DNA of 64,000 nt from the NCBI GenBank assembly GCA_024699855.1, contig JAMPIQ010000004.1, positions 95,735-159,734 on the forward strand. Reading direction: 5' to 3'. Both the position numbers and the translations under genes were made by a program. Source of the DNA: Aphelenchoides besseyi (lineage: Eukaryota > Nematoda > Chromadorea > Rhabditida > Aphelenchoididae). The notes beneath the pieces are model-generated. The model was not told the DNA's origin and made no database searches. It saw nothing but the letters and a program-made list of their open reading frames with translations. Of this stretch, positions 1,465 to 54,696 are shown in pieces. Positions within the stretch are counted from its first letter, which is position 1; every line of letters begins with the position of its first letter.

Positions 1465-1701
1465 CGAGTTGGCTGAAACACGCAAACGTATGATAAACCA
1501 TCGGATGTTCATGACACGCAATTGCATTCCGTTTCGACGGCTTCGAATATCGAACAGCAATCAGCAAGCATCTGTTTATTGGTATAAAAACATAATAAAA
1601 AGTTCAAATCAGCTAAAAACAATCACTAACGAGAATGAGATAAATAGTAACGTGGGTCGATTGAACTTGCGGCGAACAACAATGTGGCATTATGTAAAGG
1701 C

Positions 1702-3206
1702 TTAAGCGTTGGGACCGCCGGTCTGTTTCAGCCCACTCATATGACGAAAGATCGCTTTCAAAGCGGGAATTCCGAAGTTGTGCGTGGCCTACAAATCATG
1801 AATGAACGTTCAACTTAAGTTCGATTACCATGTTGAAATCCCGAAGTTTATCTTGTAAACTTTTCGGCAAGTCGCTGCTCATGTGTTCCTTGTCGAGGAT
1901 TTCGTACATTTCTTGGCAGGCGACTTCGAACAATATGTCGAAAACTGCAGACAGTCCATTGGGTCGAGATCGACATTCGCGTATTCTGCTGATCATCTGA
2001 GAATACATGAGACGATTGCGTCGACGGGAGCGACGCAATTCGCTTCGGACTTCATTGGTCGGAAATTGTTTAAACATAAACAATTTCAAATCGTCGGCCA
2101 TTTGCATGGCTTCAACTAAAAATGAAACGTGATTACGAGTTCGAATGTCGAACTAACCTTCGCAAAGAGGTATGAAGCAGTTCAGTTTCACGTTCACTCT
2201 CTGGCCGGCAGAAACCTCGACTCTGTATTCGGCCAACTTTTGCTTCAAAGCTCTTCCTGCATCTTGACCTTTGGCTCTAAATGGTCGGATTGAAGAATCG
2301 GTTTCGTGGTTTTGACTCACTTTCTGATGATGCCGTTGATGTACGAAATGTTCAAGGTCTCCGGGGCTGACAGACGGCGTTTGATCTCCGAAATTGTGAT
2401 TTGGTATTTTTTGTTTTCGTTCAACAATCCCAAACGACCCGGAATTTGAAACAAGACATCATCTTTGGTCTTGATGTTGTTGTTTTGCGAAGCCATTTGT
2501 TTTGGGGAATTTCCGAAAAGATCATTTGCAGTAGTTGATAAACCTAAATTGGGGGATAAGATTTCGCATTTAGTAGAAAGCATTCTAAAGCTTGTTTGTT
2601 GCGCATATCATGTGGCAAGTTTGTTGAGTCACTTTGTAATTTAAACCGAACATTGTTTACTTACTGTTGAGTGTCGATGAAGGATCCGTGTAAACGCCGC
2701 TGTCGAACGTGTTGTTTTGAGCGAAAAACGAAGTTGGTTGCATTGGGGCCGAAGACATTGGAAAGTTGGAGGATGGTAGTGAGTTGTTTGCGAGTTGTTG
2801 AGTTGACAGTTGCGGCTGATATGGAGGGTACGTGTGGCTGGGCCATTGGGTTCCAATTCCGTAATTCTGAAATTGAGAGTACATCAACTTGCTCTCATCT
2901 TCTAGATACCTCAAAGAATCCTGCTTGCGAGACCGGGATGAGCGGAAATGAAGGTTGGTAGTCTGTAAATGTGGTCATTAGCTAGAACGACCTTCAAAAC
3001 TTACGGCCGAGGTTTTGCGGTGTTGATTGAGTAACCGGTTGGAATGATTGCCGATTGTAAGAGTTCTCTGTTAGAACCGTTTGCTTCTGTACGATGTTCT
3101 CTTCATGATCAGCCGAATCACGAAGACGTTGGCAACTGTTCGCCAAGCCGGACGACGACGCGAACGGCGGGAGTCCGTCATTGTTGTCTCGGACGTTGCT
3201 GTTCAT
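1702..3206 (-). CDS. TFAP2: AP-2 family transcription factor, copy A
   Basis: Sequence-specific nuclear transcription factor that binds DNA as a dimer. Exons on the minus strand are approximately 3206-3005, 2962-2665, then one starting near 2550 with the basic region (IPGRLGLL, ISEIKRRLSAPETLN), one carrying KGQDAGRALKQKL and RVNVKLNCFIPLCE, the helix-span-helix exon near 2118-1830, and a last exon with ATHNFGIPALKAIF. The N-terminal part has a PPYQP motif like the AP-2 activation-domain PY motif, in a Gln/Ser/Pro-rich stretch. The helix-span-helix is divergent but aligns around RDFNM-ATHNFGIPAL, where vertebrate AP-2 has HFNL-THGFG. Exons 2 to 6 join in phase. The exon 1/exon 2 junction is off by one base in my reading, so that boundary is unsure. 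Confidence 0.82.
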
Positions 3207-4614
3207 TTTGGTGGCGTTTGGAATGAAACAGATGGACTGCAAATAAAAAGTTCACGATATAAGACGTGAGTCAGAGTTTTCGCGCCAACACGATTTTGGC
3301 ACTACAAACGTAAACGTCTCTGAGCCAACTCCAGAGAATAATCACCGACTGAACGACTTGTTCTGAGTGGCTTTGTTCGTTCAATACCCCAACCATTTCA
3401 CCACACCCTTATTTGTTTTTGAAGCCTTCAAATTTGGCTGTAAAACCCCACGCAGACCAATTAGAGATTGGATAACAACGTCAATCAGTTCAAGTACAGA
3501 TCAATTTGGCGGATGCAGGCTTGACCCGCGGGTACCTCTCATTCGTTTCCGCAGATCGGTCATTGACCTGACGGTTCGAATTCAAACCGAAAATGTCGAT
3601 CTTCGAATTAAGCACTAAGATTGAATATCAGAACGTGCGATGAGCAGCCACCTTCTATTACGTTAGATCGTAAACTCAGTAGGGTTTGTTTATGAGAGAG
3701 TACGAAAGACAATGATTAAAGCGAAACCGCATATTGAAGGCAATCAACTTAATGACAAGCCTGCGAACTCCCATAATTTCATAAATGCAAGATGCGCAGT
3801 GAACATCGAAGATAAGAACACTTATTTTTCAGTTGTTACCGGACCGATTTCCTACGCTTTTTGCGTTTTGTCCGGAATTAATAACTTCCCCACAATCCCC
3901 GCGCATCAAGAAAAAATCACGCCGACGAGCACAATTTGTAGCTGCTGGAACGGCTTCATGACGACCAAAACCGAAACGTCCACGAAAACGTCGCTGAACA
4001 GTCACCTGACTTTACGTTTTCACAAATCCAAGAACATGAAACGCTGTCAGTTCCGCTGTCCAATCCTTTTGACGACAAATTGGCATGAGTGGGTGTTAGT
4101 CGTCTCAACGACCAAAGGGCGTGTTGAAGACAGTAACCGATTGAGGGAGGAGGAAGAGCGCCGACAACAAGGTCATTGGCCCAGACTCCTACTTTCGAAA
4201 GAACAAAGGGCGCTGATTACGCAAATCAGCGAGTCGTTTAAATTTTGCCCTTACGACTTGTGATGCGACAATTGGTAGCGCCCATTGAAAGGCGCGCAAA
4301 AACAACAGTTTTCGCTAATCACCCACAGCAAACGCCGTCGGTGTTCGGTGGTTTCAAGATTTGAATTTTTGCTTGCCAGTCGAAAACAATGATTGCCGCG
4401 AAACATTGCTAACTGCCGTCTATTTTTGAACGTCAATCTGAAAAAGGGGCTTTTCATCGCCGACAATCGCAACACAAGAATTCGATTCTGTTGCTCTGAA
4501 ACGCCAGAGGCTCAGTTCTTCTCTTCGATTAACAAAGCGGTTGAAGTTGTGAATTTGATTTCTTTTACAATTCGCTGTGGTTTCGTTCGAAAAGTTTATT
4601 CATAGACAAAAAAA
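3185..4614. repeat. Block X, copy 1 (1.4 kb segmental duplication)
   Basis: This stretch recurs in the same orientation at 51351-52783 with only about one or two differences per 100 bases by eye. It begins in the first codons of the AP-2 gene and holds its 5' flank. A 183-codon open frame at 3712-4263 is broken in the other copy by a two-base insertion (AACACTTATT against AACACACTTATT), so I do not regard it as a gene. No other coding signal was recognised. Confidence 0.85.
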
Positions 4615-4621
4615 CTTGAAA

Positions 4622-5109
4622 ACATAACCAGTAGCTTTCATCAGGATCATCGTGTTCGGCCGAAGAAGTTGAAGGCGGTTCGGGATCGCTCAGGGCCGCG
4701 TAAGCTGCGTGAAGTGCTTTAACTCCAAAATTGTGGGTAGCCTGAAAATAGAAGATTGGCCATCATATCGAGCGTAACCAACCAAATTGAAAGCGTGAAG
4801 TTGATGTTGTAAATCTGGCAGTAACGGCGTCCGATCCATGAAATCGTCCGGATCCCCGTAACCCATCTCGAGTAATTATCGATCGCATTCGAGTTCGAGC
4901 ACCTCAGCGGCACAACCGAACATCGCTATCATAAGGTCACCGATTGCGTCGGCCATCTGATCAATTTTGTATTTGACTGAACTCGAATCGTTCATTTCTG
5001 TAGTTACAAGTCTGACGACATTCTGAGTAGAGAATGAAAGTCGATCAAGACGAGTAATAGACATCCTCAGGCTTATGAATATGATTGGAATTTGCGGCCA
5101 TGTCTTCAA
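4622..5109 (-). pseudogene. AP-2 remnant, copy B (helix-span-helix only)
   Basis: The two final AP-2 exons can be read on the minus strand. One carries TPLLPDLQHQLHAFNL, followed by an intron of about 40 bases ending TTTTCAG and the last exon with ATHNFGVKALHAAYAALSD. This is closer to the usual AP-2 helix-span-helix than copy A. Upstream in the same frame is MADAIGDLMIAMFG and then an in-frame TAA at 4878-4876, between ELECDR and LLEMGYGD. No basic DNA-binding region or activation domain is present before it. I call it a relic; an alternative splice that avoids the TAA is possible but not evident. Confidence 0.6.
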
Positions 5110-8545: not shown

Positions 8546-8617
8546 TGGAGATATGGGGAATTGAACCCCAGCCCTCTCGCATGCTAAGCGAGCGCTCTAC
8601 CACTGAGCTATATCCCC
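8546..8617 (-). tRNA. tRNA-Ala (anticodon AGC)
   Basis: On the minus strand the sequence starts GGGGATATAGCTCAGTGG (A box) and carries GGTTCAATTCC (B box). Acceptor stem GGGGATA pairs with TATCTCC with one G-U. The anticodon loop CTTAGCATG gives AGC, which reads Ala codons. There is no intron and all four arms can be drawn. Confidence 0.95.
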
Positions 8618-32500: not shown

Positions 32501-35500
32501 GACCAAATAAGGGAATTACACGTGTTACAATTGGAGATGGTACAAGCAAAGAGATTGTACGCAATCCGTTTGGCGGATTCACAATTCGTAGTTTGGCTGT
32601 CGACTGGATTAACTACAATCTTTACTTCATCAGTGCTGATTCTGATCGTACACACATTGAAGTCTGTCAATTGAACGGCGATAATCGAAAAGTTTTGCTT
32701 TCAACAAAAACCGAAACACCAACTTCAATTGCTGTTGATCCAATCAAACGTTATATTTATTGGTCGGATCAAGGACAGAAACCATCCATTCAACGGGCAC
32801 ATCTCGACGGTACAACGAAAACGGTGATTGTTAGTGAGGGATTGAAAGAACCAACTGATTTGGCCATTGATCCTAATACTCATTACGTTTATTACGCGGA
32901 TGCAGGAATGGATGGTATCTAGTAAGTTTAAACATACAAGTCTCGGCTTCAATGTTTCTTTAAGCCGTGTTCGTCCTGAAGGTGGCAAACCAGAATTAGT
33001 ACGCAGCGATATTGCCGAAGCAACGGGCCTTGCGATGCTCAAAAACAACATGTATTGGACGGATCGTCGTTTGGAAAAAGTTTTCTCCGCTACGAGCAGT
33101 CCCAATCAAACTCAATTGTTTCTTTCGCCAACAACCATTGAATCGCATTTGGAAGATTTGGGCGATATCGTTGCTTTCGATCCATTTGTTCAACCACGCG
33201 CCACAAGTCCATGTCATATTACGGACAATCTCCGCAAACCGCCGTGTCCACAGCTGTGTTTTGCTTTGCCCGATCAGCCAGTTCCGATTTGCGATTGTGC
33301 TCGTGGAGTTCCTCGAGGTCGAACATGTGAAGGTAAAATTGTTGAAGTGAAAGTTATATAACTTTATTTTTCAGAGCCGGAAACTTATTTGCTTGTCGCT
33401 GATGGCGATCAAATCATCGACTCAATGATTGTACCGGGACTAAAATCCTCACAACCACTTCGAGAACAACTACCATCACTTCCCGGACTGCAAATGTTCG
33501 ATATTGATGTCACTCTTCGTCGAATTTATTACGTGACCGAAACTCCACAAGGTGCAAATATCAGTTGGTTTGCATTGAATGCCGCTCATGCGCCTCGACT
33601 CTTGTTCAGTCCTGATAGATCGAAATCTACGGAACAGAATGCAAGACATATCTCCGACTTGCGTCTTGATTGGGTTACTCAGAAATTGTATTGGACGACT
33701 GGAAGAACTGGAAAATTGTACGCTATGGACACACAAGGCGAACATTTGGTGACAATTGCCAACGGCGATTGGACTTATGCTCTTGCATTAGATCCTTGTG
33801 CTGGACTTGTTTTCTGGTCAGACAGCGGCTACAAACTCACGGGTGGAGCCTACGAGCCTCGTATTGAAAGAGCGAATACGGCGGGCGGAGAACGTAAAGT
33901 TATTGTCAATACGGACATCAGTCTTCCCGCTGCATTGACCGTTGATTTTCGCGATCAGCGACTTTACTGGGCGGATATCAATCGATTGAATGTCGAGTCA
34001 TGCGATTACGACGGAAACAATCGTCGAGTTGTTGGTGTCGGATATCGAGCTAAGAGTTTGGATCTTTGGCAACGTTGGTTATATATAAGTGATCCATTGG
34101 CCAACGGTGTTTATCGTATGGACAAAGATACGGGCAATGGATTTGAGTTAGTGGTTGGCGATCGACGCGTTCCTGGCACTGTTCGAATGTTCGCATCGGA
34201 AGCAAATGTTGCCACACGAAATCAGTGGTGCAATGCACACACTCAAGTAACCATCAAAAACAATCAATTTACCTATTATATTCTTAGGATTTGTGTCGAA
34301 AAAATAACGGCGGTTGTGATCAAATTTGTAATGCTATTTCGTCGACGGTTGGAGTTGCGGCAAATCGTGTTCAATGCTCATGCAACGACACCTTCCAATT
34401 GGTTCTTGAGCCGGGAGAAGATTTCCCAACTCAATGTGTTCCATTAGCTGCTGCACGTCAAACATGTGAAGGTCCCTACAACTTCCAATGCGAATCGGAC
34501 GGCGCCTGTGTTTCATTGGACGTTACATGTGATGGCAAACCGGATTGTTCAGACTCGTCTGATGAGCATCCAAACTATTGCTGTAGGTCGATTGCATCAA
34601 TTCCTTTACCAACTTCTTTACTGCAGTTACTCGATTCTGTCCCGAAAAATACTACTTGTGCACGAATCGAAAGTGTATTCAAGAGGCTTTGCGTTGTAAT
34701 GGAATCAACGAATGCGGCGATTCTTCCGATGAACTCGATTGCAATCCAAGTTTAAGTTGTCCAGCCGGTACTTTCGCTTGTACGAACGGTCATTGCATCA
34801 ACGAAACCAAAGGTAATATTGTAAATGAGATTGTGTGATTAGCGCCGCAGATCGCAACTCCTTTAATTTATAGTTTCTTGCTGTACTGTTTATTTGCCTA
34901 CCAATTATCATGCGTACATTTAACACATAACCTACATGCTTTCAAAAAATTACTTCAAAACCTTCGCTCCAACTGCACAGATTCCACTAATCGCCGCCGA
35001 CAAATTGAATTGCACGCTCTTCTTGTACACGGCTATTAAGACGTCTAAAAGAAGATAGAAGTATCTATGACATTGACTAACTCTCTTTCAACACACGAAA
35101 TCAATTCATTATCGTTTGATGGTCGCTTCGTCCATCGAGCACTGCTTCTCAGCAGAACGAAACTGATAGTTCAATGGCGTTTCATTTCAACTCAAAGTTC
35201 ATTCTCGACGCTTACCTATTATCATTTAAATTTTCTCACGACATTTTGCAGTTTGTGATGGCAAGAACGACTGTCGAGATCCCGATGTTTCGGACGAAAA
35301 CGAAAAAACTTGTCCCGGACTTCCCATCGATTGTCGAGGCGTTCGAATGAAATGTCAGCGAACGAACATTTGCATTCAACCTGCCGGTAAGAATTGAACT
35401 TAAAGTGTTGAATTATAACCTTTTTCTTAGATTTGTGCGATGGCTATGACGATTGCGGTTTAGGGGACGACGAGCAGCGTCTATTCTGCATGAGTAGACC

Positions 35501-38500
35501 GTGTCCCGAACATTACGTTCGATGTCCGAGTAGTGGCCGTTGCATTCCAAATACGTGGATTTGCGATGGCGATAACGATTGCGGTGGAGCAGACGCGTGG
35601 GACGAAACACACACCAATTGCACAGATTCGAATGGTAACTATTCGTTTATGGAACAGCTTTCTTGCGGTTCACTTTGTCTAATGTCGTTTTTGAAACAAA
35701 TAGTTTATTTACAATAGGCTAAATAAGAGAAGTGACCAGTTCAAGGTTCTTATACGATCACTACATTGCTCATTTTCTTCTTCAATTGAATACACAAAAA
35801 TTTCAGGAAAGCACGTTTGCGTAGGCGACTACGTCTTTCAATGTATGGACGGAAAATGGTTAGTTTATATCATCACTTAACCTCCAATTGTCGTAAACCC
35901 GTATTGATCGCACATAAGGGTTTGAAGCTCAAGAAAGAGAGAGCATATTAGAAATTGATTTTTCAATAAAATGTAAAGGCTAATGGACATTTACGGTAAT
36001 TGTAATGTCCAAAAGGATATCGCCTTCTTTGACTATTAGTGGCCTAATCGATAAAAGTCATATCAAACGAGATACACAGAATAAACTCTACAGTCAGTTA
36101 TGTCAAAAAAAAAGTAAAATTACTTTCCGTGTAAAGACGTAGAGTAAACAAAAATAAGATTAAATTTAAAGGTTGTTCATCCCTTTTCTTTCAGCATAAG
36201 CCGAAGCTTCATTTGCGACGGAGAAGCTGATTGTGCCGATGGTTCAGGTAAGCTAATTGGGATTCTATTGGGCATTCAAATCATTCTGAAACTAAACTGA
36301 TATTTAGATGAAAGTGAAGTCCATAACTGCGGCAATCGAACGTGTACCGACCAAGAGTTTCATTGCGCTTCAAATGCCAAATTGGTTCAGCCAAAATATG
36401 AATGCATTCCAAAGTGAGCTTATAGTCGTTGTTAGTAAAGAACTCGATTTGTTTCAGATCATGGCTTTGCGATGGGGAAGTAACGTGTAGTGGAGGAGAA
36501 GATGAGTCTCCAGAATTATGCGGTGTCACAAAACGAGATTGCAATAAGGGCGAATTCAGGTCTGACTATGATTTTTTGAAGAGATTACATTCAATTCCGA
36601 ATTGTTTAGATGCAACAATTCTCATTGTATAAATTCTGCTTGGTTGGTTTTAAAGTTAAAGACTCGAGTAATGCATTTGTTTCAGGGTTTGTGATGGTAC
36701 GTTTGTTCGCTGCAGGATACCCTTACATTAAGTCGAATTGTATATACTCGAGATTTTCAGGCGAAAACGATTGTCTTGATTCGAGTGATGAGCATTCAAA
36801 TTGCAGTATGTTCATTTCGTTAACTCAAAGTCAATAATCTAATTTGCAGCATATGCTCAATGTCAACCCGATTTTTGGGCGGTAAGTGGCCAAAGAACTA
36901 TTCTGTTCACAGTAATTTGTAGTGTGCTAATCACAAGTGCATTCCAAAAACCTGGAGATGCGATGGAAATGACGACTGTGCAGACGCATCTGACGAACAC
37001 GATTGTCCAAGTGTCGATGCCCACACGTCTACAGGTGTTGATGGTCATGTTTGTGGACCCAATCAGTTCGCGTGTACTTCGGGTGAATGTCTTCCGCTAG
37101 AAAAAGTAAGTGCTATTTTAGAGAGAGTTGGCTTTATAGTAATTACACAAAATTTACGTAGAAAATCGCTCTCTTTAGAACATATAACCGAATAAAATAA
37201 CAAATTTTTGGGATGTTTCCACGAAATACTACATTGCGCACTTGCTCGATGTCGTTACGGGTTTTCGAATTTGCAGGTTTTTGTATCGACTTTCTGAAAA
37301 ATGCAAAAATTTATTCGGTTCAACCAATTTAACAACGAGACAAATAGGTACAAAAGATGATGATTAGTTAAATTGATGCGAATGCTTCGACCGCTTTTTT
37401 ATTCGCTCCGGTCCTTAACAGTTTGCTGTTATGCTGATCCAAGTTCCTTCCATGTCTTTTCGCCAGCGATCCGCGGGTCTTCCTAGTGGTCTCTTCTGAT
37501 CGTATCGCCATCATAAGGTCGTTCGAGTAGTCCAACAGTTGTCGTTTCGTCTGGCTACACGACTCCTCCAATTGAACTCACGTTGGATTGCATCTTCCAC
37601 TGCGTCCTTGAACATTTTGCGGTTCCGGATTGTGGAGCTTCGGGTCTTTTCGCGCAGACGAATACCAAAGACTCCATTGCTCGTTGGGTTGTTGTTAGCT
37701 TGATCCGTTCGGTTTTTCGTATAATCCAAGTTTTCGAGTCGTAATTGAGCGTTGGCCGGACTATCGAGTAGAACAACTGGACACGTATCTTGGCGTTTGT
37801 AGTTTTCCTTAGTACTTGCTGAATATTTTTGAATCCAAGTAACCAGCTGATCGTCATCTTTGAATCTCGCCGTCGATTTTGTGGCCTTCGGTAATTTTCT
37901 GTCTTAGACAAACGTATTATTTAACTTGTCCAATTTGCCCGCCTTTGAATTCAATTAGTTTTGGTCTGCAACTCGGGTTAGGCATGACATTCGTTTTCTT
38001 ACCATTAATCCAAAGTCTAATTGGCGTGCCAGCATCATCCAGTTCGTTCTACATCATTTCAGTTGACTCAAAGTTGTGAGCGAACAGAACGATATCGTTG
38101 GCGAACCCAAGGTGATGTAATTCTTCTCCATTGATTCGAATTCCGTAGTTTCTCTAGTCCAACCGGCGAGTAACGTCCTCCAGGGCGCAGTGAAAAGCGT
38201 CGGTGATATGGTATCGCCTTGTCTTACTCCACAATACATTGGAATTTCTACTGGTTTGTAGAAGAATTGGAAAGTGTTGGAACAGTTGGAATTGATGTTG
38301 AGTAGTGTTCTGGTGCATTTTTTTCGGGATGTTTTGGTGAACCAGTGAGTTGATGGCTGCGTTGATTTCCAATGGCTTAAATGCTTTCTCGTCGTCTACC
38401 AATACTAAGCACAGTGGCATCTTTATCTTGCGACATCTTTCCATCAGTTGGTTTACCGTTTAAAAACGATCGACCGTTGAACATCCAAAATGAATGCCGA

Positions 38501-41500
38501 TTTGTTCTCGTGGTTGTTCGGCGTCCAGTTGACTTGTCATTCGCTTGACCAGTACTTTCGTGAACAACTTGTATGTTGTTGGTAGGAGTGCAGTCGGTCG
38601 GTAGTTCGGGAGGTTCTCGAGGTCGCCTTTCTTTGGTATCCGAGTTGAATGATTTTCACGTCTATCGTTTCAAGCAGTTTTTCTGGAACTAACTGTAGTA
38701 ATAAAATGACACTGTTCTTGGGTGAATTCAATAAGCATTTCTGCGTTACCGTCTTTGTTTCATTCGTTTCCAGTAAAAGATCTCATGAAACGTTGATTCG
38801 AACCAAATGCAAAGAGCAGTTACAAAAATCTGCATTTTGTGTTTTTTGCAGTGCCGTGGAAGCATCTCAAAAACCTTTATTATTTCAACGACTTATATGA
38901 GTTTGTAGGTGTGTAATAAAAGGTACGATTGTCCCGACAATAGCGATGAATCCCCGCAGTGCTGTAAGTTATGAAATAAGATTGCAGTTGAAATCTGTTT
39001 TCAGTTGTTGATGAGTGTACACTGGCCGATAGACCGCTTTGCGAACAAAAATGTGTTGATTTGCCCATTGGCTACAAATGCGAATGTTTCGACGGTTTTC
39101 AATTGGATAAAGACGACGGAAAGTCTTGTCACGATTCCAACGAATGTGAAGATGGTACCGCTCTTTGCTCACAACAATGCGACAACAAGGTTGGAAGCTA
39201 TCGATGTACTTGTGTGGATGGTTATTCGCTGGAAGCAGACAATCACACGTGTAAACGCGTCGAAGCCACGCCCGTTCCATTTCTTTTGCTTGCTAACAAA
39301 CATTACATTCGACAAATCACTGTTGACGGTTCGCGAATGGATCTTGTGGCGCGCGGATTTGAAAATGTTGTTTCAATGGACGTTGACGTTCACGACAATA
39401 AGATTTATATTATGGATGCCGGCAAACTTCGTCTCTATCGAATTGGTATCGACAATATTGGAGCTCCGATTGCGGATTACGAAACGATTGTTCGACACAA
39501 TGTTTTCGGCACTGAAGGCATAGCTGTAGATTGGGTGGCTCGCAAGTTGTACATGTTGAATCGACAAGATCGATCTTTGCGTGTTTGTGAATTGGACGGT
39601 CGTTATTGTCGAACTTTGATTCGTGATCGTATTCAACAACCCAAAGCAATTGTTATTCATCCACAAAAAGGATATTTGTATTTCACCGAATGGTCACTTC
39701 AACCTTACATTGCTCGTGTACCGTTGGATGGAGGTCCGAATATGGCCGATCCAGTGGAAAAGTTGGCTGAACACGATTTGGGTTGGCCGAATGCATTGGC
39801 AATCGATTTCTACGCTGATCGACTCTTTTGGGGTGATGCACATTTGAACGAAATTGGTTGGATGGATATGGGAGGCCGCAGTCGGCATCACATTCCCGCT
39901 AAGCGAACATCTCATGTGTCGTCGATGACCGTCTTTGATGATCGACTTTTCTGGTCTGATTGGAATCTACGACAAGTTATCGCTGCTGATAAGTGGACTG
40001 GTAAAAACGAAAGTGTTCTTGCAACCACAATTCAATTGCCAAATGATCTTCGAATCGTCCACCCACTTCGACAACCTCGTTATCCAAACCCTTGTGGTGA
40101 TAACAACGGCGGCTGTTCGCATTTGTGTTTGATTGCGGCCGGAGGAAAGACGTTCACGTGTGCGTGTCCAGATCAGTTCATTTTGATTAACAATCAAACT
40201 TGTGAACCGAATTGCACGGCTCGACAGTTCGCTTGTGGAGGAGAAGACGCCAAATGTATAAGCCATTTGTGGTATTGCGATGGTGAGGCGTTAATTGAAC
40301 TATTTGATATTGTAAATTTGTAGGAGAAAAAGATTGCGCCGACGGTTCGGATGAGCCAGGCGAAGCGATTTGTGGTCCTCGAATTTGTCCTGTTGGTGAA
40401 TTTCAATGCTCAAACCACAATTGCACTCGACCATTCCAACTTTGCGATGGCATGTTGTTTTTAATAAACTCTAATTGGTGTTGGTCTTTTAGGAATCGAC
40501 GATTGTGGAGATCGATCCGATGAAATGAACTGCGAACTGCCATGTGATGATTGGATGTGGAAATGCAAAGACACAGGTAAGTCGTTATGCAATCAAGGCA
40601 CGAGCGAGCTTCTCACTGTCTTCCGGTCGTTCTTTTTGCCTTTTGTTGAGCGGGGTTAAATTCGATGTTTATAGGCAAATGTATTCCCAAGCGTTTCACG
40701 TGTGATGGTAAGAGATCAACTTATAGTTTTGAATGAAATGCGAATGTTCAGGAGATCGAGATTGTAACGACGGTTCGGACGAAGCACCGGAAATCTGTCA
40801 GAATCCGCAACGAAATTGTACGGCCGAAGAGTTCCGATGCTCCAATCACAAGTGCATTCCGAAATCTTGGCGTTGCGATAACGAAAACGACTGCGGCAAC
40901 GATGCTCCTGGATCGGATGAGATCGGTTGCGAGAATGTTGAGTGTCCGAAGGGTTGGTCGCGTTGTGGCAACGGAAATGGACAGAATTATCGTTGTATTC
41001 CTGACTGGGCCTTCTGTAACAATGTTGACGATTGTCATGATGGAAGTGACGAGTTAGTTTCTAACTGCCCGGTTTGTGACGATGTTGGAGAGTTTCGTTG
41101 TGCGGCTTCGAGCAAATGTATTCCGCTGAGATGGATGTGTGATTGTAAGTCAAGGGAAGTTTGAGAATTCACGAACACGTTTTCCTTTAGCTGAAAATGA
41201 TTGCGGCGATAATTCGGACGAAACAGATGCACGTTGTGGCGGTACAAGTCGACCATGTTCGGAATCAGAGTTCAGATGCAACGATGGTCATTGTTTAGCG
41301 CCGTCAAAAGTAGTTAAAACATGGGTTTCTTCATCCTTGTTAATTTCAGGTCTGTAACGGAATCATCGAATGCTCTGATGGCTTAGACGAGTCACAATGT
41401 CATTTGCGAAAATGTCAAGAAGGAATGCGACAATGTAATGATGGCACCTGTCTGCCGGCCAGTAAATTGTATACGAAGCTTTTCTGAACAACGTCGTTAA

Positions 41501-44500
41501 CTTTTGCTTTTAGCTGTGATCGTAGACGTGATTGCGCTGGAGCAGAAGGTTAGTTCCAAGTTCTATGCCACAGATGAAAACTTGTCCTTTCAGACGAACA
41601 AAATTGCGAGAGTGTTTCACGTCGAATGTGCAGTCCATTCGAATTTGAATGCGGCAATTCGGTTTGTGTTCCACGAAAAGTACTTTGCGATGGAGATGAT
41701 GACTGCGGTATGTTAATGTTCTCTGCAACCTTCGACCGTCAATTGTTGTAGGCGACAATACGGACGAGACGAACGATCAATGTCGAACTGCACTTTGCGA
41801 GCCACCACTTCGTTTCCGTTGTTCGCATTCTCGACGTTGCTTGAACATTTTGCAATTGTGTAACGGAGTCAACGAATGCGGAGAAAACGACTTCTCCGAC
41901 GAGCATCTATCCATGTGCTCTTCATTCAGCGAGTACGGAGAATGCTCGTCAGAACAGTTCAAGTGTTCAAGCCCTCACATCGATCGTGAGTCTCATTCTC
42001 GTTTTACTGTTTATTGCCTTCCAAGTATGATGCACAAATTTAATTCAAAAATTGTACTCTCAAGTAAGATCACCGTAGAACTTTCGCGCTGATTGCACAA
42101 TCCCAGTAATAGTACTTGTCAAATCGAACTCCACGTCCTTCTTGTACACGGCCATCAGAACATCTGAAAAAAGGTGTTTTCAACATCGATTTTTTATCAG
42201 GTGCACCAACCTTTGTTTCCAACACCCGGAATCAAGAAGAAACTTTTGTTAATAGCCAGGACGATATCTCGCTTTACACCCAACACTTTGGCGATTTCGA
42301 ACTTCGAGAAGTGCGCGTATACCTTGTTGTTGCAACGACTTTTGTTCTTAGCGGCGTTCATCAAGATCTTGACAGTTTTTTGCGCATACTGAAGTTTAAC
42401 GTTTACATCATGAATCTTACAATAGCTGTTACGTCACTTTTGTTTGATTACTCGAATAGATTTGAACGACACGATTTCTGTTCTGAATCTTGCAAGCGCT
42501 GTCGAGATTCTTTTGTTATCGAAAGTGCTTCGATGTCCTAAACAACAGCTATTCACGAAAACAAGTTTCGAACCTTTTCAACGCAATCAAGTCCACAAAT
42601 CAGTGCGAACTGATTAGTTTGATCTTCGCTGCTATTTTCCACACCAGAAAAACGATTGCCGAGCATCGCTGCAAAACGTTCAATTCATTATCGTTTGATG
42701 GTCGCTTCGTCCATCGAGCACTGCTTCTCAGCAGAACGAAACTGATAGTTCAATGGCGTTTCATTTCAACTCAAAGTTCATTCTCGACGCTTACCTATTA
42801 TCATTTAAATTTTCTCACGACATTTTGCAGGAGATCGTTGTGTGAATTCGAGTGTTGTTTGTAATCACGTGGATGATTGCGGTAGGTTGCAAGTTGCATA
42901 CGTACAAGTTAGAAGCTTCGTTTTAGGTGACAACTCGGACGAAATTGGATGCAGCAAAAACAACGGCAAGACCTGCTCTTCACATGGCGATAACGGTGGT
43001 TGTCGACACTTGTGTACGGATGTTTCGGGCGGCTATTTCTGTCATTGTCGTGATGGTTTCCAACCGGATCCATTGAATCCGTTCGACTGTATTGATATTG
43101 ACGAATGTGCCGGAAACAACACGTGTACTCAATTGTGTTTGAATACCAAAGGCTCGTATTTGTGTCGTTGTGTGGACGATTACGAAAATGCTGTGGTTGT
43201 TGGTGCTATGACCGGAAAAGATTGTCGAGCAAAGGTGCGAATTCATTGTCGAGTTCAAACTGAAGTTCTGATTTTAGGGTGATTACGCGGAGGTTGTGGT
43301 CGCTTCTAACAATCAACTCGTTCAACTCGCACTTCACGGTTCTCAGGGCGTCAATCATAACGCTGCTGTTCATCCAACAAGTGACGATGAAAGCAACATT
43401 GTGGCCGTCGATTTCGATCCCCGTCGTCAACTGATGTTTTGGATTGATGCACAACAACGTCGAGTCTATCGATCAGCAATTGCTAAAGGCAATCAATCGC
43501 ACGTTGGACAGAAATTGGACGTTGACTTCACGACACTCGGCATTCAACCAATGGCAATTGCTGTCGATTACTTGAGCGGAAACGTTTTCGTAACGACAGT
43601 CGGCGATGAGAATGCGGCGGCTGCATTCGATTTGCGTCGACGAAAGCGAATGTCCGAACCGAGAATTCCGGATATTGGAGCCATCTATTTGATGACATCC
43701 GATGGTCGTTACATCAAACGAATTCTCAACGGCAATCTTCAAGTCCCGACTGCCATTGTAACGCTGCCACAATTGGGTCGAATTTGTTTCGCTGATGCGG
43801 GTCTTATGGCTAAACTGGAATGCGCTGATATGGACGGCAACAAACGACAGGTTTAGACCATAATATTAACATACCTTCAATTGGAACTTTTAGATCATCG
43901 TCAATCAGTTGATCTTTGAACCGAAGTCGATGACCGTAGATGAGGGTCGTAATCATCGGATTTATTGGGCAGATCCAAAAACGCGAAAGATTGAATCCGT
44001 GTTACCGGACGGAAGTCGTAGACAAACGATTGTCCACGACAAAAAGATACCATTTGCTGTCGATGTCTTCGAAAACCATCTTTACTGGGCATCAAAAGAT
44101 ACTCTGTACGTACAAGATAAGTTCGGTCGCGGTCGAGTTCATGTTTTGGCTTCTGCTCTCACCGACGTTCACAGCGTTCGAGTTCAACAACGTTATGCTC
44201 GAGATGTTTCTCGTGCTCAAAGCTCGTGTATCGATCGTAATGGCAATTCGGTTTGCTCGCATTTGTGTGCCGAATTACCGTCTGGTCAACATCACTGCTT
44301 ATGTCCGGAGAACGTGACACAACTGATCGATGGTACATGTGCTGGGCTTCAAGTTCCCGAATTGCCGTTACCAAAACAATGCGCTTGCGAGAATGGCGGT
44401 CGTTGTATGTTGGACGGAGCTTGCGATTGTTTGGACGATTACGAAGGAGAGTTCTGTCAAAAAGGCTCAACCGTTTCACGTCAAGTAAGCTGTCGAGTTG

Positions 44501-47035: not shown

Positions 47036-49959
47036 TGCGTTGAACGGGATTTATTAGGGTGCTTTACAACAGACGATGAACGGAACTGGATTGAAAGGGA
47101 CTTTGAAGTGGGAGCTCGGGAATTCTGTAGGAGTCTTTCCGGTGGTGTTTTTTATAGTACCCATTTCGGTCTTCCATCTGGCAAGCAATGTGAACGAGTG
47201 GTCAGAATCGAGGCTTTTTAATAAGAATCTAATTTCGCTGTTCGAGTTCGCCTGTATAGGTTGATCTTTCGAAGCAATACTTCACGTTACCGGCAGTCCT
47301 GCAATTGGGACTATTGTAACGGAAATGAAGATAGAAGATGTGACAACTTACAATCGAGTTTCGTTAGTCGGCTCCCTGGTGTATTCAGGAAGTTAGTTGG
47401 TCAAATAATCGAAACAACCCTTCTGATGATTTTCGCTAGAGGCCAATACAATCCAAAGTGAGTAATAATGTTCATGACATTAACAAATTTTCAGGTTCTT
47501 CGAATTCATTTCTTGAATATCAAGGCTGTGTTATCCGATTCTATTGGTGGGAGTTTGATCACTACTCCTAGGGTTGAATTTTGGTCCCAAATAAAACATT
47601 ATGCCGACTATCGACAAGCGTAGTGACTTTGAGATCTTCACCATTTGGCGAGGAGATTAGAGACTTTCAGTTACTCAATTGCTTTTGTCGTAAACAAACC
47701 TTTAAAATCATTTTCTTTTGTACTTTCAATCTTCGACTTAGAGTCGCGAAGACAACCGGCAAATTTCATGTCTTCATTTTCGGTTTGGAGACTGTTGAAC
47801 ACATTGATAGAATCTCGTAGGCATCAACTATATCAACATACAACCACTCACTATTGAACTATCACAAATTAACATGATCGGAAATCACTTAATCTTGTGA
47901 TCACAATTTTGATTATAGCTTTTGATATCGATCTCAGTAACTGTAAATTGCATGAATAATGTAGTCTAAACATAGTCGAAGCAAATGAGCCGTAAATTTC
48001 AACCATCAGACATTAAAGTCCGAGAGAAGTCAACTTCCATTGTCTACAACTCGAAGACCAGTGACTGTATAAGCTTGTAGTTAACAAAACAACAATAAAC
48101 ACTATTGCACTCTAAACCCTGTGAATATCAGCGAAATCCGATCAGCCAATGAGCTACAATACAAAACACCCCCCCCCCCCCCTTCCCTTGTTTGACACGT
48201 CCATCGTGCAAAACGGTGTATCTTGGAGATTCTGGCAACAACTAGTGCTCAAATTGTTTTAACAGATAGCTTAAAGGTTTAGCTATTCAAGGTGTTCAAA
48301 CTCGTAGCTACCGGATAACTGGAAGAGAAGTGAAAGCACTTCAAAGCCCAACAGTTTGTCAAAAATCGTCCAAAATTGCAAAAGTTTGTGGAGCTCTTCT
48401 CACTAAAGATGGATAGCTGTAATTTGGCACACTTCTTATGGAGCTTAAAAGATTATAATTCTAGGAATTTCGAGAGCTGAGGTTGATCGAGAGCAGAATT
48501 GGAATCTAAAACACACTCAAAAACTGAGTCTCGTGAACTTGACTATAACAACGATATTAGTTGGTCTCAATCGCTGTAATTTGCGGGACAACTACACAAT
48601 ATTGGATTAGTTTGTGGTGGTTACTGCATGTTAATCGATTTAATGCTTGCAGAAATCGAACCTCACGTCTACGGCTTGAGATAAGGAAAAGTAAGAAGCA
48701 CAATTGCTTTCATATCTCAACTTCTAGTCGTCGAATGTTAATCAACTTCCAGCCACGTCGAATCAGTCAATATCTTAACATCTAGAGTTCTGATCAAACG
48801 TTTCTCGTGGTTATCGTAGTGAACGCTCTCTAAAATTTATTGGTTCAATTATCGTAAAGAAATTTAAAATCACTACGTGAAAAAGCTACCGGATCTTCAC
48901 GTCATTCCATTGTTAGATACACAAATGACCGCGAGTATCGCTGATACGTCAACCCGTTGGACCGATGTTGGGTTGCATATAAACCCGTGAAATCAATCGA
49001 TTCAGCCATTTTCACTCTTTTTTTCCTTCATTTGCTCTTGGATCCCGTTCAGTGGATCAAAACATGGATTTTCGTTTACTATCGCGTTTCGGATTGGGAC
49101 TGGAAGGAAGTGGAATTTGATGATTGTAGTGTATTCGGAGAGTGTTATTAGCGAGCATTCAGGCAACCCTCATGTAGTGAGATCGATTTTGTTGTTCTTC
49201 ATCTGCGACTGTTTCCAAGGAATCTCAAGTGAACGTCACAGCATCTAGCCACTTGTTTTCAATATCTGGTCATTAAAAAACCATCACACTACTCCAAGCT
49301 TTTGCATTCAATAGTTCAAACAGAAGCTACTCCAGTTTTGCCATCGTATATTCTGGAATGCGATCACTGCGAGTTTATAAGCAACGTCCAACGATGATCA
49401 TTCGTGTTGTTTGGGCGCAAAGAGAAATGTAAATGGCGTGCCAACCAGCTTCGCGCAGTAAAAGACGGAGCTACCTTGTTTCGTGATCGGGCGCCATGGC
49501 CGTTCAGATGGTCAGTTGCCGTTTTTCTTCATGACCAAGCAACCGGTTGCCATCTCTTCCTCCGCTTTGTTCTAATCTTCGTCGTTTTGATTTCGTTTAC
49601 CCAACGATTTCTCCTGCTTGATTAATCTGAAGTTTAGAGTCACCTATCCAGTGGTCATCCGAAGCTCTAATCTTGATTGCCTCATGTCGCTTTCCTCCGC
49701 GTTGGTCAAGAATTGTGTTCACTGTTGTTGTGTTGTTGCAGCTTGTTGTTATGCTTTCTTCCCATTTCCTACGCATTTCAATTTGTTGTTTGGGTTTGTT
49801 AAGTCAAGCTTGAGAATAACTCTACGACTGTCGTTGTCATCATTCTTTTTGCTAACAGAGATCGAAGAAAATTTGGGGACTTCGATTTGAATGAATCTTA
49901 GAAATCTTGTAAGAGAGTGTTATCCACTTATTCGCTTGCAGTTTTGTGATCTTGTCTAG
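47036..49959. other. 2.9 kb apparently gene-free stretch
   Basis: No reading frame with splice support or family resemblance on either strand. AT-rich, with a run of 14 C at 48169-48182. It ends at the breakpoint with the lipase pseudogene at 49960. A highly diverged repeat or a lost gene may be hidden here, but nothing can be named. Confidence 0.45.
48169..48182 (+). repeat. Homopolymer run of 14 C
   Basis: ACAAAACA followed by 14 C and TTCCC. A mononucleotide tract in otherwise AT-rich sequence, of uncertain length because such runs are error-prone in sequencing. Confidence 0.8.
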
Positions 49960-50610
49960 CGAACTGAACGCCGCCATTCCGCTTTCCCACGACAACGAGT
50001 AGGTGGCCAAAATGATTCCAATCACATTGAAGATCGACGTGGCGCTCGGAGCAAACTAAAAGCCAAAAAGAAAAGCAATTTCAAAGACTTTGAACCTACA
50101 AACCCGAAAACCGAATGTACGACCATAGAAACAAGAAGCATCCAGGCTCTCGATTCCCTTCAGCATCCCACGATACAACGAGTAGTCGCAGTCAAGCGAC
50201 GGGAACAACGAGTTCTCGTCCAATGTTTCGGTCCAAAGCACGACCGAAATCCATTTCCCGGTGTGTGTTCGTCGTAATCGCATTTTCGTGCAGCCTCTTG
50301 CATCTTCAGCATCAAGTCTGAAATCAGCGATCTTTCAAATGAACGATGTCAACAGCTGTTACCGTTGATCATTTCACTGCAACATTCGGCGATTCGCCGA
50401 TAGCACATGGATTTGGTTCGATTCGCGTGGAAGTAGACGTGATTCTCGTCGGCCAGCTAAACCCTATGAAGTCATTTCGAACACGAGGAAATCAGATCAC
50501 CAGTTTGAGCAAACGGAAAACTCCATCACGCTCCACGAGAATTCGCGGTCCGACTTCAACTTTGCGCGAACGACCGTTGGAATGGCGTTGCGATGAGTTT
50601 CCGTTTGCAT
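49960..50610 (-). pseudogene. Hormone-sensitive lipase pseudogene C1 (5' fragment)
   Basis: Matches copy A at 541-1464 in the same order. It keeps the exon with MQTETHRN, the exon with the start of the N-terminal domain, the [10 protein letters not shown] exon, and about 80 bases of the next, where it stops abruptly at 49960. It is broken in two ways: one G missing near 50570 (TTTGCGCGAACG against TTTGCGCGGAACG) shifts the frame of exon 1, and the segment equal to 832-1083 of copy A, which includes exon 1037-875, is deleted. Not functional. Confidence 0.88.
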
Positions 50611-50846
50611 CGAGTCGGCTGGAACACACAAACGTATGATAAACCAGCGGATGCTCATGACGCCCCATTTCATTTCGTTTCAACGGCTCCGAATATCGAA
50701 TAACAATCAGCAAGCATCTGTTTATTGGTATAAAATCTTAATAAAAAGTTCGCGTCAGCTGAAAACAATCACTAACGAGAATGAGATAAATAGCACGTGG
50801 GTCGATTGAACTTGCGGCGAACAACAATGCGACATTCGGTGAAGGT

Positions 50847-51372
50847 TTAAGCGCCGATCTCTTTCGGCCCGCTCATATGACGAAAGATCGCTTTCAAAAC
50901 GCGAATTCCTAAGTTGTGCGTGACCTGCAAATCATGAATGAAAGTTCAACTGAAGTTCGATTACCATGTTGAAATCCCGAAATTTATCTAGCAAACTTTT
51001 CGGCAGCTCGCTGTTCATGTCTTCCTTGTCGTTGTTGGATTGTAACGAACGTTCCACCTTGTCGACGACTTGGAACATTAGTTGGTTAGCAACTTTGTTC
51101 AATACGTCCTGAATTGCAGACAGTTCATCGGGTCGAGATCGACATTCGTCCATTCTGCGGAACAATTCAGAAGACATGGGAAGAGTGCGTTGATAGGAGC
51201 GGTCGAATTCGTTTTGAAATTCATTGAGCGGAAGTATTTCAACAATGAACAAGTTGAAAACGTCGGCATATCGCATGCCTTCGACTAAACATGAAATTTC
51301 ATTACGAACTCGACTGCCAAACTAACTTTCAGGAAGACCTGCGAAGCCGGTGTCTCGGACGTTGCTGTTCAT
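50847..51372 (-). CDS. AP-2-derived short protein, copy C (dimerisation domain only)
   Basis: Exons 51372-51327, 51284-50965 and 50924-50847 join in phase, giving about 147 residues. It begins with the first seven codons of AP-2 copy A (MNSNVRD), then TGFAGLPE, and splices straight to the helix-span-helix exon (EGMRYADVFNLFIVEILPLN ... ECRSRPDELSAIQDVLNKVA ... LPKSLLDKFRDFNM), ending VTHNLGIRVLKAIFRHMSG with PKEIGA. The activation region and basic DNA-binding exons of copy A are absent. No stop or frameshift interrupts it. From AP-2 biochemistry, such a protein could dimerise but not bind DNA; that is inference, and expression is unknown. Confidence 0.6.
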
Positions 51373-52783
51373 TTTGGTGGCGTTTGGAATGAAACAGATG
51401 GACTGCAAATAAAAAGTTCACGATATAACACGTAAGTCGGAGTTTTCGCGCCAACACGATTTTGGCACTACAAACGTAAACGTCTCTGAGCCAACTCCAG
51501 AGAATAATCACCGACTGATCGATTTGTTCTGATTGGCTTTGTTCGTTCAATACCCCAACCATTTCACCACACCCTTATTTGTTTTTGAAGCCTTCAAATT
51601 TGGCTGTAAAACCCCACGCAGACCAATTAGAGATTGGATAACAACGTCAATCAGTTCAAGTACAGATCAATTTTGGCGGATGCAGGCTTGACCCGCGGGT
51701 ACCTCTCATTCGTTTCCGCAGATCGGTCATTGACCTGACGGTTCGAATTCAAACCGAAAATGTCGATGTTCGAATTAAGCACTAAGATTGAATATCAGAA
51801 CGTGCGATGAGCAGCCACCTTCTATTACGTTAGATCGTAAACTCAGTAGGGTTTGTTTATGAGAGAGTACGAAAGACAATGATTAAAGCGAAACCGCATA
51901 TTGAAGGCAATCAACTTAATGACAAGCCTGCGAACTCCCATAATTTCATAAATGCAAGATGCGCAGTGAACATCGAAGATAAGAACACACTTATTTTTCA
52001 GTTGTTACCGGACCGATTTCCTACGCTTTTTGCGTTTTGTCCGGAATTAATAACTTCCCCACAATCCCCGCGCATCAAGAAAAAATCACGCCAACGAGCA
52101 CAATTTGTAGCTGCTGGAACGGCTTCATGACGACCAAAACCGAAACGTCCACGAAAACGTCGCTGAACAGTCACCTGACTTTACGTTTTCACAAATCCAA
52201 GAGCACGAAACGCTGTCAGTTCCGCTGTCCAACCCTTTTGACGACAAATTGGCATGAGTGGGTGTTAGTCGTCTCAACGACCAAAGGGCGTGTTGAAGAC
52301 AGTAACCGATTGAGGGAGGAGGAAGAGCGCCGACAACAAGGTCATTGGCCCAGACTCCTACTTTCGAAAGAACAAAGGGCGCTGATTACGCAAATCAGCG
52401 AGTCGTTTAAATTTTGCCCTTACGACTTGTGATGCGACAATTGGTAGCGCCCATTGAAAGGCGCGCAAAAACAACAGCTTTCGCTAATCACCCACACCAA
52501 ACGCCGTCGGTGTTCGGTGGTTTCAAGATTTGAATTTTTGCTTGCCAGTCGAAAACAATGATTGCCGCGAAACATTGCTAACTGCCGTCTATTTTTGAAC
52601 GTCAATCTGAAAAAGGGGCTTTTCATCGCCGACAATCGCAACCCAAGAATTCGATTCTGTTGCTCTGAAACGCCAGAGGCTCAGTTCTTCTCTTCGATTA
52701 ACAAAGCGGTTGAAGTTGTGAATTTGATTTCTTTTACAATTCGCTGTGGTTTCGTTCGAAAAGTTTATTCATAGACAAAAAAA
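51351..52783. repeat. Block X, copy 2
   Basis: Near-identical to 3185-4614, same strand, starting within the first codons of the AP-2 copy on each side and ending in the same A-rich run. Differences are scattered single bases plus small indels (an extra T in AATTTTGGCGG, an extra AC in AACACACTT). No gene recognised. Confidence 0.88.
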
Positions 52784-52809
52784 ACGAAGAACATGGTTGT
52801 TAACAAGAT

Positions 52810-52870
52810 CAGTAGCTTTCATCAGGATCGTCGTGTTCGGCCGAAGAAGTTGAAGGCAGTTCGGGGTCGA
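52810..52870 (-). pseudogene. AP-2 copy B C-terminal remnant, second copy
   Basis: Corresponds to 4625-4685: the last codons of the AP-2 copy B frame (PSTSSAEHD region) on the minus strand. The match ends at GGGGTCGA, where lipase pseudogene D begins, so this is a breakpoint junction. Confidence 0.7.
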
Positions 52871-54696
52871 CCCGCAATCTTCATGAACCCTTCGTTCGTT
52901 GAAACCGGCGATTCGAACGCCGGCATTTCGAAGTTTCTTTGCAAACGTGATCGTATCGTCCAACAATGGATCCAGATGGCACGACTAAACTCGAAAATTG
53001 TACGTTCAAAATCGTTCGCTTACAATGAAACGACAAGTCGGAAGTTCGCGGAGCAACTCGTCGGGAGTGTACATGGGCGAAATCGAACAGTCTCGTGGCA
53101 GATTCAATCCGAGCAGCTCGCTAAGCGAAGTTTCAACTTTCTCTGCTTCCTAAAATCACTATCTTTACTACGTCGAATACTCGACTAAACCACCTTCTGT
53201 GCAGCACGAGCAGCTTCGTGGAAGTCGGCAGTTGCAGCACGAGTCAATTTCGGAGTACTGCAGGTGCGAGTTCGTGGACCGCAAATGCGTACCGGAGTCG
53301 TGCAGTGAAATAGTCGCCGTCATGCATTCACTACGTCGACATATTCCAACAACGACTTGTGTCCTCGTTGACTGATCAAACTGTTGCTTGTGATTTCCGA
53401 TCTAGTTCCATTCGGACAACAGTCTGTGTACGCAGCAGCACAACGAATAACAATTCCCATGTGAAGAAGCGGGTCTGTGAAACTGAGCACCCGTGATGGC
53501 GAAGGAAGATACTATAAATGGCAACTTCAAAAGATCATAAAGAAAGCAAAGTACTTGGAATCAAACCGTCCGGCATTCTCGCGGCTTTCAATTGAGCCAA
53601 ACGAAGGGCAACCGAAACGATCAGATTACCACCGGCCGAATCTCCGACCATCAAAAGTTTTTTGCCGTCCCATCCAAACTTCTCAGGATTCTTCAGAATC
53701 CAGGCATAAGCGTAGAGCACGTCTTCGGTGGGAAGTGGAAATGGGAATTGAGGAGTTAGCGAGTAATCCACCGACACAATCGGGCAGTCCAGATACTTTG
53801 CGCACAACCGTAAATATGTTTCGTGCGATTTTGACGATGTTGCTACATAACCTAAAAGAAGGAACTCGCGTTTTTATATGTTTACCGCTTTTCCAACCTC
53901 CACCGTGACAATGAAGTAATAGATTGGAGGAAAGTGGCTTCGTTGATTTTTTGGACGACTAAACATCTCAACGATCAGAAGCATTCAATCCACGTGACCT
54001 ACCAATCCTTCACGACTTGTTGCCGACAGGATGCGCACTTGTATCGGAGCTGATGGTCCATGAGCACCCGGTTCAGGAATTTCAATTGACCGCCCATCTC
54101 TTCCATCCAATCGGATCGGACCGTCCATCGGAATCAGAACGACTTTGTTGATCTCCATCGTTGGACAAAACAGTTTCGGCGGCGGATTTCGGATAGGTTC
54201 CAAAAGTCGCGGCAAAACTCCAGATCGGCTTCTCGAGTCACTTTGATGATTCGTCGAGCACGCTCTTTAGGATTCAGAAAGTAGCGGCCGGAATGGAGCA
54301 GCGAACTGAACGCCGCTGTTCCACTTTCCCACGAAAACGAGTAGGTGGCCAAAATGATTCCAATCACATTAAAGATCGACGTGACGCTCGGAGCAAACTA
54401 AAAGCCAAAAAGAAAAGCAATTTCAAAGACTTTGAACCTACGAACCTGAAAACCGAATGTACGACCATAGAAACAAGAAGCATCCAGGCTCTCGATTCCC
54501 TTCAGCATCCCACGATACAACGAGTAGTCGCAGTCAAGCGACGGGAACAACGAGCTCTCGTCCAATGTTTCGGTCCAAAGCACGACCGAAATCCATTTCC
54601 CGGTGTGTGTTCGTCGTAGTCGCACTTTCGTGCAGCCTCTTGCATCTTCAGCATCAAGTCTGAAATCAGCGATCTTTCGAATGGACGATGTCAACA
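52871..54696 (-). pseudogene. Hormone-sensitive lipase pseudogene D
   Basis: Covers most of the gene on the minus strand. It runs from the exon with the TPGNGF region near 54690 through [10 protein letters not shown] and [10 protein letters not shown] to HCHGGG at about 53900 and VSVDYSLTPQFPFP. The nucleophile motif GDSAGGN lies near 53660, the TDCCPNGTRS region near 53390, and the acid-residue motif HLDPLLDDTITFAKKLRN near 52940. Defects: the same exon deletion as C1 (equal to 832-1083 of copy A), a missing G near 54185 (GGCGGATTTC against GGCGGGATTTC) that shifts the frame, no first exons, and truncation before the catalytic HGF. It shows what the rest of copy A should look like beyond the left edge. 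Confidence 0.9.

What the first reader, a model, noticed from the sequence alone, without database searches (positions are those of the whole stretch)
35101..42830. Identical 151-base tracts that end exactly at two splice acceptors of one gene
Megalin introns 34813-35251 and 41996-42830 end in the same 151 bases without a mismatch, while the exons that follow are unrelated. Identity stops at the AG. Seven kilobases of diverged sequence lie between. This could be a recent gene conversion, or the 3' end of an element that supplies its own splice acceptor, in the manner of introners. Exact coincidence with the 3' splice site is hard to explain by random duplication.
Basis: partly seen in the sequence, partly recalled or inferred. 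Interest (0 to 1): 0.82.

Follow-up and report, generated by a model that had tools for sequence, protein, structure and literature searches.

The report
Recently copied intron end in megalin
Two introns of one nematode receptor gene are old, diverged copies that each hold traces of a small gene on the opposite strand, and the last 151 bases of one were probably copied into the other recently; it looks like ordinary DNA copying rather than a new kind of mobile intron.

Summary
Bases 35101-35251 and 42680-42830 are identical (151/151), and identity stops on the last intron base in both. The whole-genome search found these two copies only, so a spreading introner is not supported.

On the minus strand this block is the last exon of a predicted nested gene, modelled with five exons in intron B and left as a remnant in intron A. 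Synonymous divergence there is near saturation (dS about 1.7, only 22 codons), against 0/151 in the tract.

This points to two layers: an old copying of an intronic segment between two introns of the gene, and a recent copying of B's last 151 bases, probably into A. The tract's left end in A is a junction with 4-base microhomology (TCAA), where 448 bases of B are missing. Its right end is where the introns give way to exons that are not homologous in register. The exact stop at AG is then largely expected.

Direction, repair route, expression of the nested gene and intron presence in relatives could not be tested. Ordinary in kind; moderately interesting.

The parts
34813..35251 (+). Intron A of the megalin (LRP2/lrp-1-like) gene, 439 bp, phase 1
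   Evidence: Gene model; sequence
41986..42830 (+). Intron B of the same gene, 845 bp, phase 1
   Evidence: Sequence. The gene finder put a plus-strand exon 42201-42524 inside it, which I judged false and removed; the segment is antisense coding in my reading
35101..35251 (+). Identical tract, copy in intron A
42680..42830 (+). Identical tract, copy in intron B (likely template)
34875..35054 (+). Older homologous block in A (68-70% to 41996-42173)
   Evidence: score 65 against a maximum of 19 in 500 shuffles
41996..42173 (+). Older homologous block in B
35085..35104 (+). Left junction in A: 16/20 match to B 42216-42235, ending in TCAA, which is also the first four bases of the tract
   Evidence: best match in the 64 kb apart from itself, though two unrelated places reach 15/20; inside intron B the next best is 12/20; 5 of 1000 shuffles reach the flank score
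42232..42679 (+). 448 bp of B with no counterpart in A, bounded by TCAA repeats (placement can shift by up to 4 bases)
34813..34873 (+). Possible original short intron A (61 bp, ends ...TTTATAG); the next bases, TTT, repeat the start of the exon at 35252
   Evidence: inference; weak acceptor score 2.9
42060..42163 (-). Nested gene in B, last exon (DVLMAVYKKDVEFDL...*)
   Evidence: shared with A at protein level
42211..42388 (-). Nested gene in B, fourth exon (predicted)
   Evidence: lies in a 78-codon open frame
42438..42482 (-). Nested gene in B, third exon (predicted, uncertain)
42574..42668 (-). Nested gene in B, second exon (predicted, uncertain)
42795..42804 (-). Nested gene in B, first exon ATGATAATAG (predicted, uncertain); lies inside the identical tract
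34950..35044 (-). Remnant last exon of the nested gene in A (DVLIAVYKKSVQFNL...*), acceptor CTTTTAG kept
   Evidence: the gene finder on its own predicts no gene here (score 0)

Best explanation
Two layers. First, long ago, an intronic segment carrying a small antisense gene was duplicated from one megalin intron to another at DNA (unspliced) level, most likely without its exons. The copy in A has since diverged and lost 448 bp between two TCAA repeats. Second, recently, the last 151 bases of the intron were copied between the paralogous introns, most likely from B into A, by ectopic conversion-type repair. The tract ends where alignable sequence ends: on the left at A's deletion junction, on the right at the intron-exon boundary. 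Shown: identity, older homology, antisense coding pattern, junction microhomology, copy number. Inferred: order of events, direction, conversion as the route, presence of related sequence in A's 3' part before the event.
For: 0/151 differences beside a co-linear block at 68-70%. If the tract had the block's identity the chance of 151 matches would be about 1e-25. The last nested exon has dS 1.72 and dN 0.23 over the 22 ungapped codons (Fisher p 0.0004 on rounded counts): an old pair with sign of protein constraint. The nested intron before that exon is kept in A (acceptor CTTTTAG; tail of the preceding exon), so no spliced antisense RNA was copied. The modules that hold the introns are not among each other's four best matches, and the introns sit at different module positions, so exon heterology limits a tract on the right. 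The copies lie about 7.4 kb apart in the same orientation, in line with Caenorhabditis ectopic conversion as reviewed in PMC3966223 (passages): frequency falls with distance over 1-8 kb, same orientation is suggested to favour it, introns were included in 15% of detected events.
Against: The remaining homology is about 30% diverged and the island is only 151 bp, poor for classical conversion; the same review says that fast intron divergence may impede conversion. No outgroup shows what A's 3' end was before. No polymorphism or read data. dS rests on 22 codons, and the gapped, less conserved tail of the exon was left out, which lowers dN.
Confidence: 0.48

Rival explanations
1. Same two layers, but the recent event was a homology-independent templated patch: break repair in A switched template to B at TCAA, copied 151 bases, and switched back within the 3' splice-site motif (CAG or longer). 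The same event removed A's 448 bp.
For: One event explains both the missing 448 bp and the left limit; TCAA is shared exactly at the junction. Other intron pairs of the gene share 2-11 terminal bases, which offers a return point at AG. C. elegans germline repair by polymerase theta makes microhomology deletions and inserts templated near the break (PMC4490562, passages).
Against: A patch of 151 bases copied from 7.4 kb away is not what those passages describe; they tell of deletions of about 7-13 bp and inserts matching sequence close to the break. A 4-base match at one junction is weak evidence alone. 53 of the 58 other introns share only 2-3 terminal bases with the tract.
Confidence: 0.27
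2. Introner-like unit: the segment is an element whose end supplies the splice acceptor, and it inserted twice.
For: Both copies end on the acceptor. In A a possible short intron of 61 bp ending ATAG precedes the element, and AGTTT stands at both of its ends. The introns sit at different module positions.
Against: Only two copies found in the genome, both in one gene. The left ends do not coincide with donors. The upstream part is 30% diverged while the tract is identical, so one recent insertion cannot explain both. The candidate target repeats seen by eye, AGTTT in A and GATCGT or GAG in B, do not correspond.
Confidence: 0.09
3. Extreme constraint: the 151 bases are a functional intronic RNA or a promoter kept identical since the old duplication.
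For: The plus-strand fold is unusually stable (z -3.06, 1 of 200 shuffles as low; only 3 of 400 random 151-base windows of the contig have as low a z). The tract holds the predicted start of the nested gene.
Against: Identity runs without a change through unpaired bases and the pyrimidine stretch to the AG, beside near-saturated synonymous sites. No Rfam family at gathering threshold. The one hit in intron A at relaxed threshold lies outside the tract and below cut-off. The minus-strand fold is ordinary (z 0.02).
Confidence: 0.08
4. Assembly artefact: the second copy was placed there by a mis-join.
For: Cannot be excluded without reads. The window is the end of a 159.7-kb contig.
Against: Both copies lie well inside the contig in open, spliceable host-gene context with ordinary acceptor scores (A 4.3, B 5.5, median 4.6 of 60). 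A sharp 151-base copy with diverged related sequence up to its left edge is not a typical assembly error (judgement).
Confidence: 0.06

Closest known systems
Ectopic (interlocus) gene conversion in Caenorhabditis, including introns (reviewed in PMC3966223, passages read)
   Same: Patchy identity over an older duplicate pair; kilobase distance; same orientation; tract inside introns; diverged flanks
   Different: Here both partners are introns of one gene and the repeat is an intronic antisense gene, not a pair of host paralogs; the island is short and its surroundings are strongly diverged
Polymerase-theta end joining with templated inserts (PMC4490562, passages read)
   Same: Microhomology at a deletion junction; sequence copied from nearby DNA
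   Different: The copied piece is longer and comes from farther away than those passages describe
Introners (PMC9860276, passages read)
   Same: Intron-to-intron similarity that stops at a splice site
   Different: Two copies, one gene, unequal age of the two similar blocks, no matching target repeats
Intron transposition or duplication proposed for Caenorhabditis (Coghlan and Wolfe 2004; not held; known here from its citation in PMC3488318, and from memory)
   Same: One intron resembling another (same-gene cases are recalled, not checked)
   Different: Here the old layer is 30% diverged and carries a nested gene, and intron gain is not shown
Intronic nested genes on the opposite strand (general knowledge)
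   Same: A small spliced gene predicted inside a host intron
   Different: Predicted only; no relative found in the one protein search made with its last exons

Membership tests
Ectopic gene conversion | Tract of much higher identity inside an older homologous pair | tested here: met
   100% over 151 beside 68-70% over about 180
Ectopic gene conversion | Homology between partners across the tract before the event | not testable with these tools
   No outgroup DNA was available; inferred from the co-linear upstream block
Ectopic gene conversion | One-way transfer (donor unchanged) | not testable with these tools
   A's left junction looks derived, which suggests B to A; not proof
Introner | Several copies in unrelated genes (the survey kept families of at least 4 introns and removed pairs from similar proteins) | tested here: not met
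   2 copies found in 47.4 Mb, same gene; criteria from PMC9860276
Introner | Similarity spans from near the donor to the acceptor | tested here: not met
   Reaches the AG, but begins 62 bp (A) and 10 bp (B) after the donor; B alone comes near
Introner | Target-site duplication or terminal inverted repeats (in a part of families) | tested here: inconclusive
   By eye only: AGTTT in A, no corresponding repeat in B, no terminal inverted repeat
Templated patch by microhomology-mediated repair | Microhomology at both junctions | tested here: inconclusive
   Left TCAA present; right junction lies in the splice consensus, and A's earlier sequence is unknown
Nested antisense gene | Open spliced coding model better than chance | tested here: met
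   Score 13.4 against at most 6.2 in 150 shuffles; dN below dS in the shared exon. But a decayed retroelement stretch in another intron scores 10.7, so the score shows coding ancestry, not a working gene
Nested antisense gene | Transcription | not testable with these tools
   No RNA data

The most novel reading that the evidence does not exclude
A nested antisense gene acts as a portable intron end: its 5' flank doubles as a 3' splice acceptor for the host, so that copies can settle at an exon boundary without harming the host message and are renewed by repeated copying between introns. This would be a low-copy, host-gene-bound relative in function of introners.
Probability: 0.08. Interest if true: 0.65.

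Novelty: new member of a known kind. Interest (0 to 1): 0.32.

Why it matters
If right, it shows that perfect identity ending at two splice acceptors can arise from ordinary copying between introns that are already related, a false-positive route for introner searches that use similarity stopping at splice sites. It also gives one gene in which two events of very different age can be read apart, and a predicted nested gene with a partial paralog in the same host gene.

Tried and rejected
Introner family: rejected on copy number. Co-duplication of the introns with their LDLa modules: not favoured. Module 13 (host of A) matches 3, 15, 18 and 16 best, module 28 (host of B) matches 2, 12, 24 and 26 best, and intron positions differ. 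Against this, the modules just before A and B share 21 of 23 bases (34695-34717 and 41859-41881, E 0.002), and of the 29 modules cut out by a text pattern several are out of register, so an old module duplication with a shift is not excluded. Retrocopy of a spliced antisense message: rejected, the nested intron before the last exon is still in A. Known structured RNA: at gathering threshold nothing in the window except a tRNA elsewhere; one sub-threshold hit in intron A outside the tract. Identity of the nested protein (last two to three exons only): two sub-cutoff Pfam hits, three solved-structure hits at E 0.57-0.88, no homolog at E up to 1, no third place in the genome (A itself only at E 0.185). 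Codon-usage scores of single nested exons are modest (5.6 and 2.9 for the last two in B, 1.6 in A where an opposite-strand frame scores 2.5). The nematode SL1 leader pattern was sought to place the species; 0 matches with 22 and with 16 bases, unexplained. Species: nearest named protein Bursaphelenchus xylophilus at 69%; genome size 47.4 Mb equals that listed for Aphelenchoides besseyi in PMC10706385 (passages), so an Aphelenchoides is likely but not shown. A wider survey of other genome regions for similar cases was not made.

Limits of my own scripts: the gene model comes from a simple script trained on 82 open frames of this contig. One exon inside B was judged false and dropped before counting introns, and the weakly modelled region 37106-39004 stayed in the count of 60. 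Of 31 (A) and 34 (B) codons of the last nested exon, 22 ungapped ones were used for dN and dS. My notes give the missing stretch as about 445 bp; the recount is 448.

Full report
OBSERVATION. The two tracts are identical over exactly 151 bases and differ on the first base to either side. Both end at a phase-1 3' splice site: intron A 34813-35251 (AAAG|GTAATA...TTTTGCAG|TTTGTG) and intron B 41986-42830 (GATC|GTGAGT...TTTTGCAG|GAGATC). In a gene model of 60 introns (38 of them 41-46 bp long) the next best of 1770 intron pairs shares 11 terminal bases. The whole-genome DNA search returned two matches, these two.

Upstream of the tract the introns are related too: 34875-35054 and 41996-42173, 68-70% identical, same order and orientation (score 65, maximum of 500 shuffles 19). 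The genome search with this part found the same two places only. On the minus strand the block is the last exon of a predicted nested gene. In B the minus strand scores 13.4 with a five-exon model, against at most 6.2 in 150 shuffles and 0.2 for the plus strand. The shared exon has dN 0.23 and dS 1.72 over 22 ungapped codons, with an excess of synonymous change (p 0.0004 on rounded counts). Leaving out the gapped tail lowers dN. The searches with its last exons found no relatives outside these two introns. The first and middle exons of the model are uncertain, single-exon codon scores are modest, no gene is predicted in A, and a decayed retroelement elsewhere in the gene scores 10.7; so coding ancestry is supported, a working gene is not shown.

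JUNCTIONS. Left: in A the 20 bases ending with the first four of the tract match B 42216-42235 at 16 of 20, the best match in the 64 kb apart from itself, though two unrelated places reach 15; the flank alignment is reached by 5 of 1000 shuffles. TCAA is common to that place and to the tract's start in B. Relative to B, A thus lacks 448 bases between TCAA repeats. Right: the tract ends at AG. The following exons are not homologous in register: the two introns lie at different positions of LDL-receptor class A modules (between cysteines 3 and 4 in A, between 2 and 3 in B), and the modules are not among each other's four best matches. The modules before A and B do share a 21 of 23 base match, so an old module duplication with a shift is not fully excluded.

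READING. Near-saturated synonymous sites beside 151 unchanged bases are hard to give one age (chance about 1e-25 at the block's identity; 0 of 151 puts the tract's divergence below 2% at 95%). So an old copying of an intronic segment with its nested gene was followed by a recent copying of the intron's 3' end. A's junction is the derived one, which suggests B as the template. A tract limited by similarity must stop at the exon, so the stop at AG is expected; consensus at 3' splice sites helps as well. Whether the route was conversion or a microhomology patch is open: conversion explains the right end better, a patch the left end.

AGAINST. Homology around the tract is poor for conversion. The plus-strand RNA of the tract folds unusually well (3 of 400 control windows as low), so some function is not excluded. 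In A a possible 61-bp intron with its own ATAG (weak score 2.9) seems to precede the segment, with AGTTT at both ends; this is the best hint for an element that brings its acceptor, but B shows no corresponding repeat.

KNOWN. Ectopic conversion in Caenorhabditis behaves in this way (distance 1-8 kb, orientation, introns included; PMC3966223, passages). Templated repair in the C. elegans germline is known (PMC4490562, passages). Introner families in the published survey need more copies and dissimilar proteins (PMC9860276, passages). A review passage calls intron transposition apparently negligible in nematodes (PMC3488318, passages). In the listings of searches for intron gain, gene conversion, introners, nested genes and template switching (titles and starts of abstracts) I saw no described case like this; subscription papers are mostly not held.

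VERDICT. A new member of a known kind, moderately interesting.

Noticed in passing
window 37106-38851 (minus strand): Another long megalin intron region holds pieces of what looks like a decayed reverse transcriptase, antisense to the host gene (RVT_1, E 7e-5, below the Pfam cut-off, in one of three pieces tested).
   Followed up: partly
window 1-4688 and 49958-54696: Direct repeats about 48-54 kb apart at 75-98% identity, with further copies, some inverted, elsewhere on the contig. One copy contains a minus-strand frame that by eye resembles a hormone-sensitive lipase (53535-53873).
   Followed up: partly
whole genome G000: No exact match to the canonical nematode SL1 leader (22 bases, recalled) or its first 16 bases, although the genome is a nematode's by its megalin.
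   Followed up: partly
window 35101-35251 (+): The plus-strand RNA of the tract has a lower folding z-score than 397 of 400 random 151-base windows of the contig, with no Rfam match at gathering threshold.
   Followed up: partly
window 34950-35044 (-) with the tract: In A the predicted first nested exon (in the tract) and the remnant last exon are in the same phase, so a short protein could be read (by eye); expected by chance one time in three.
   Followed up: no
window 8546-8617 (-): A tRNA gene (Rfam RF00005).
   Followed up: no
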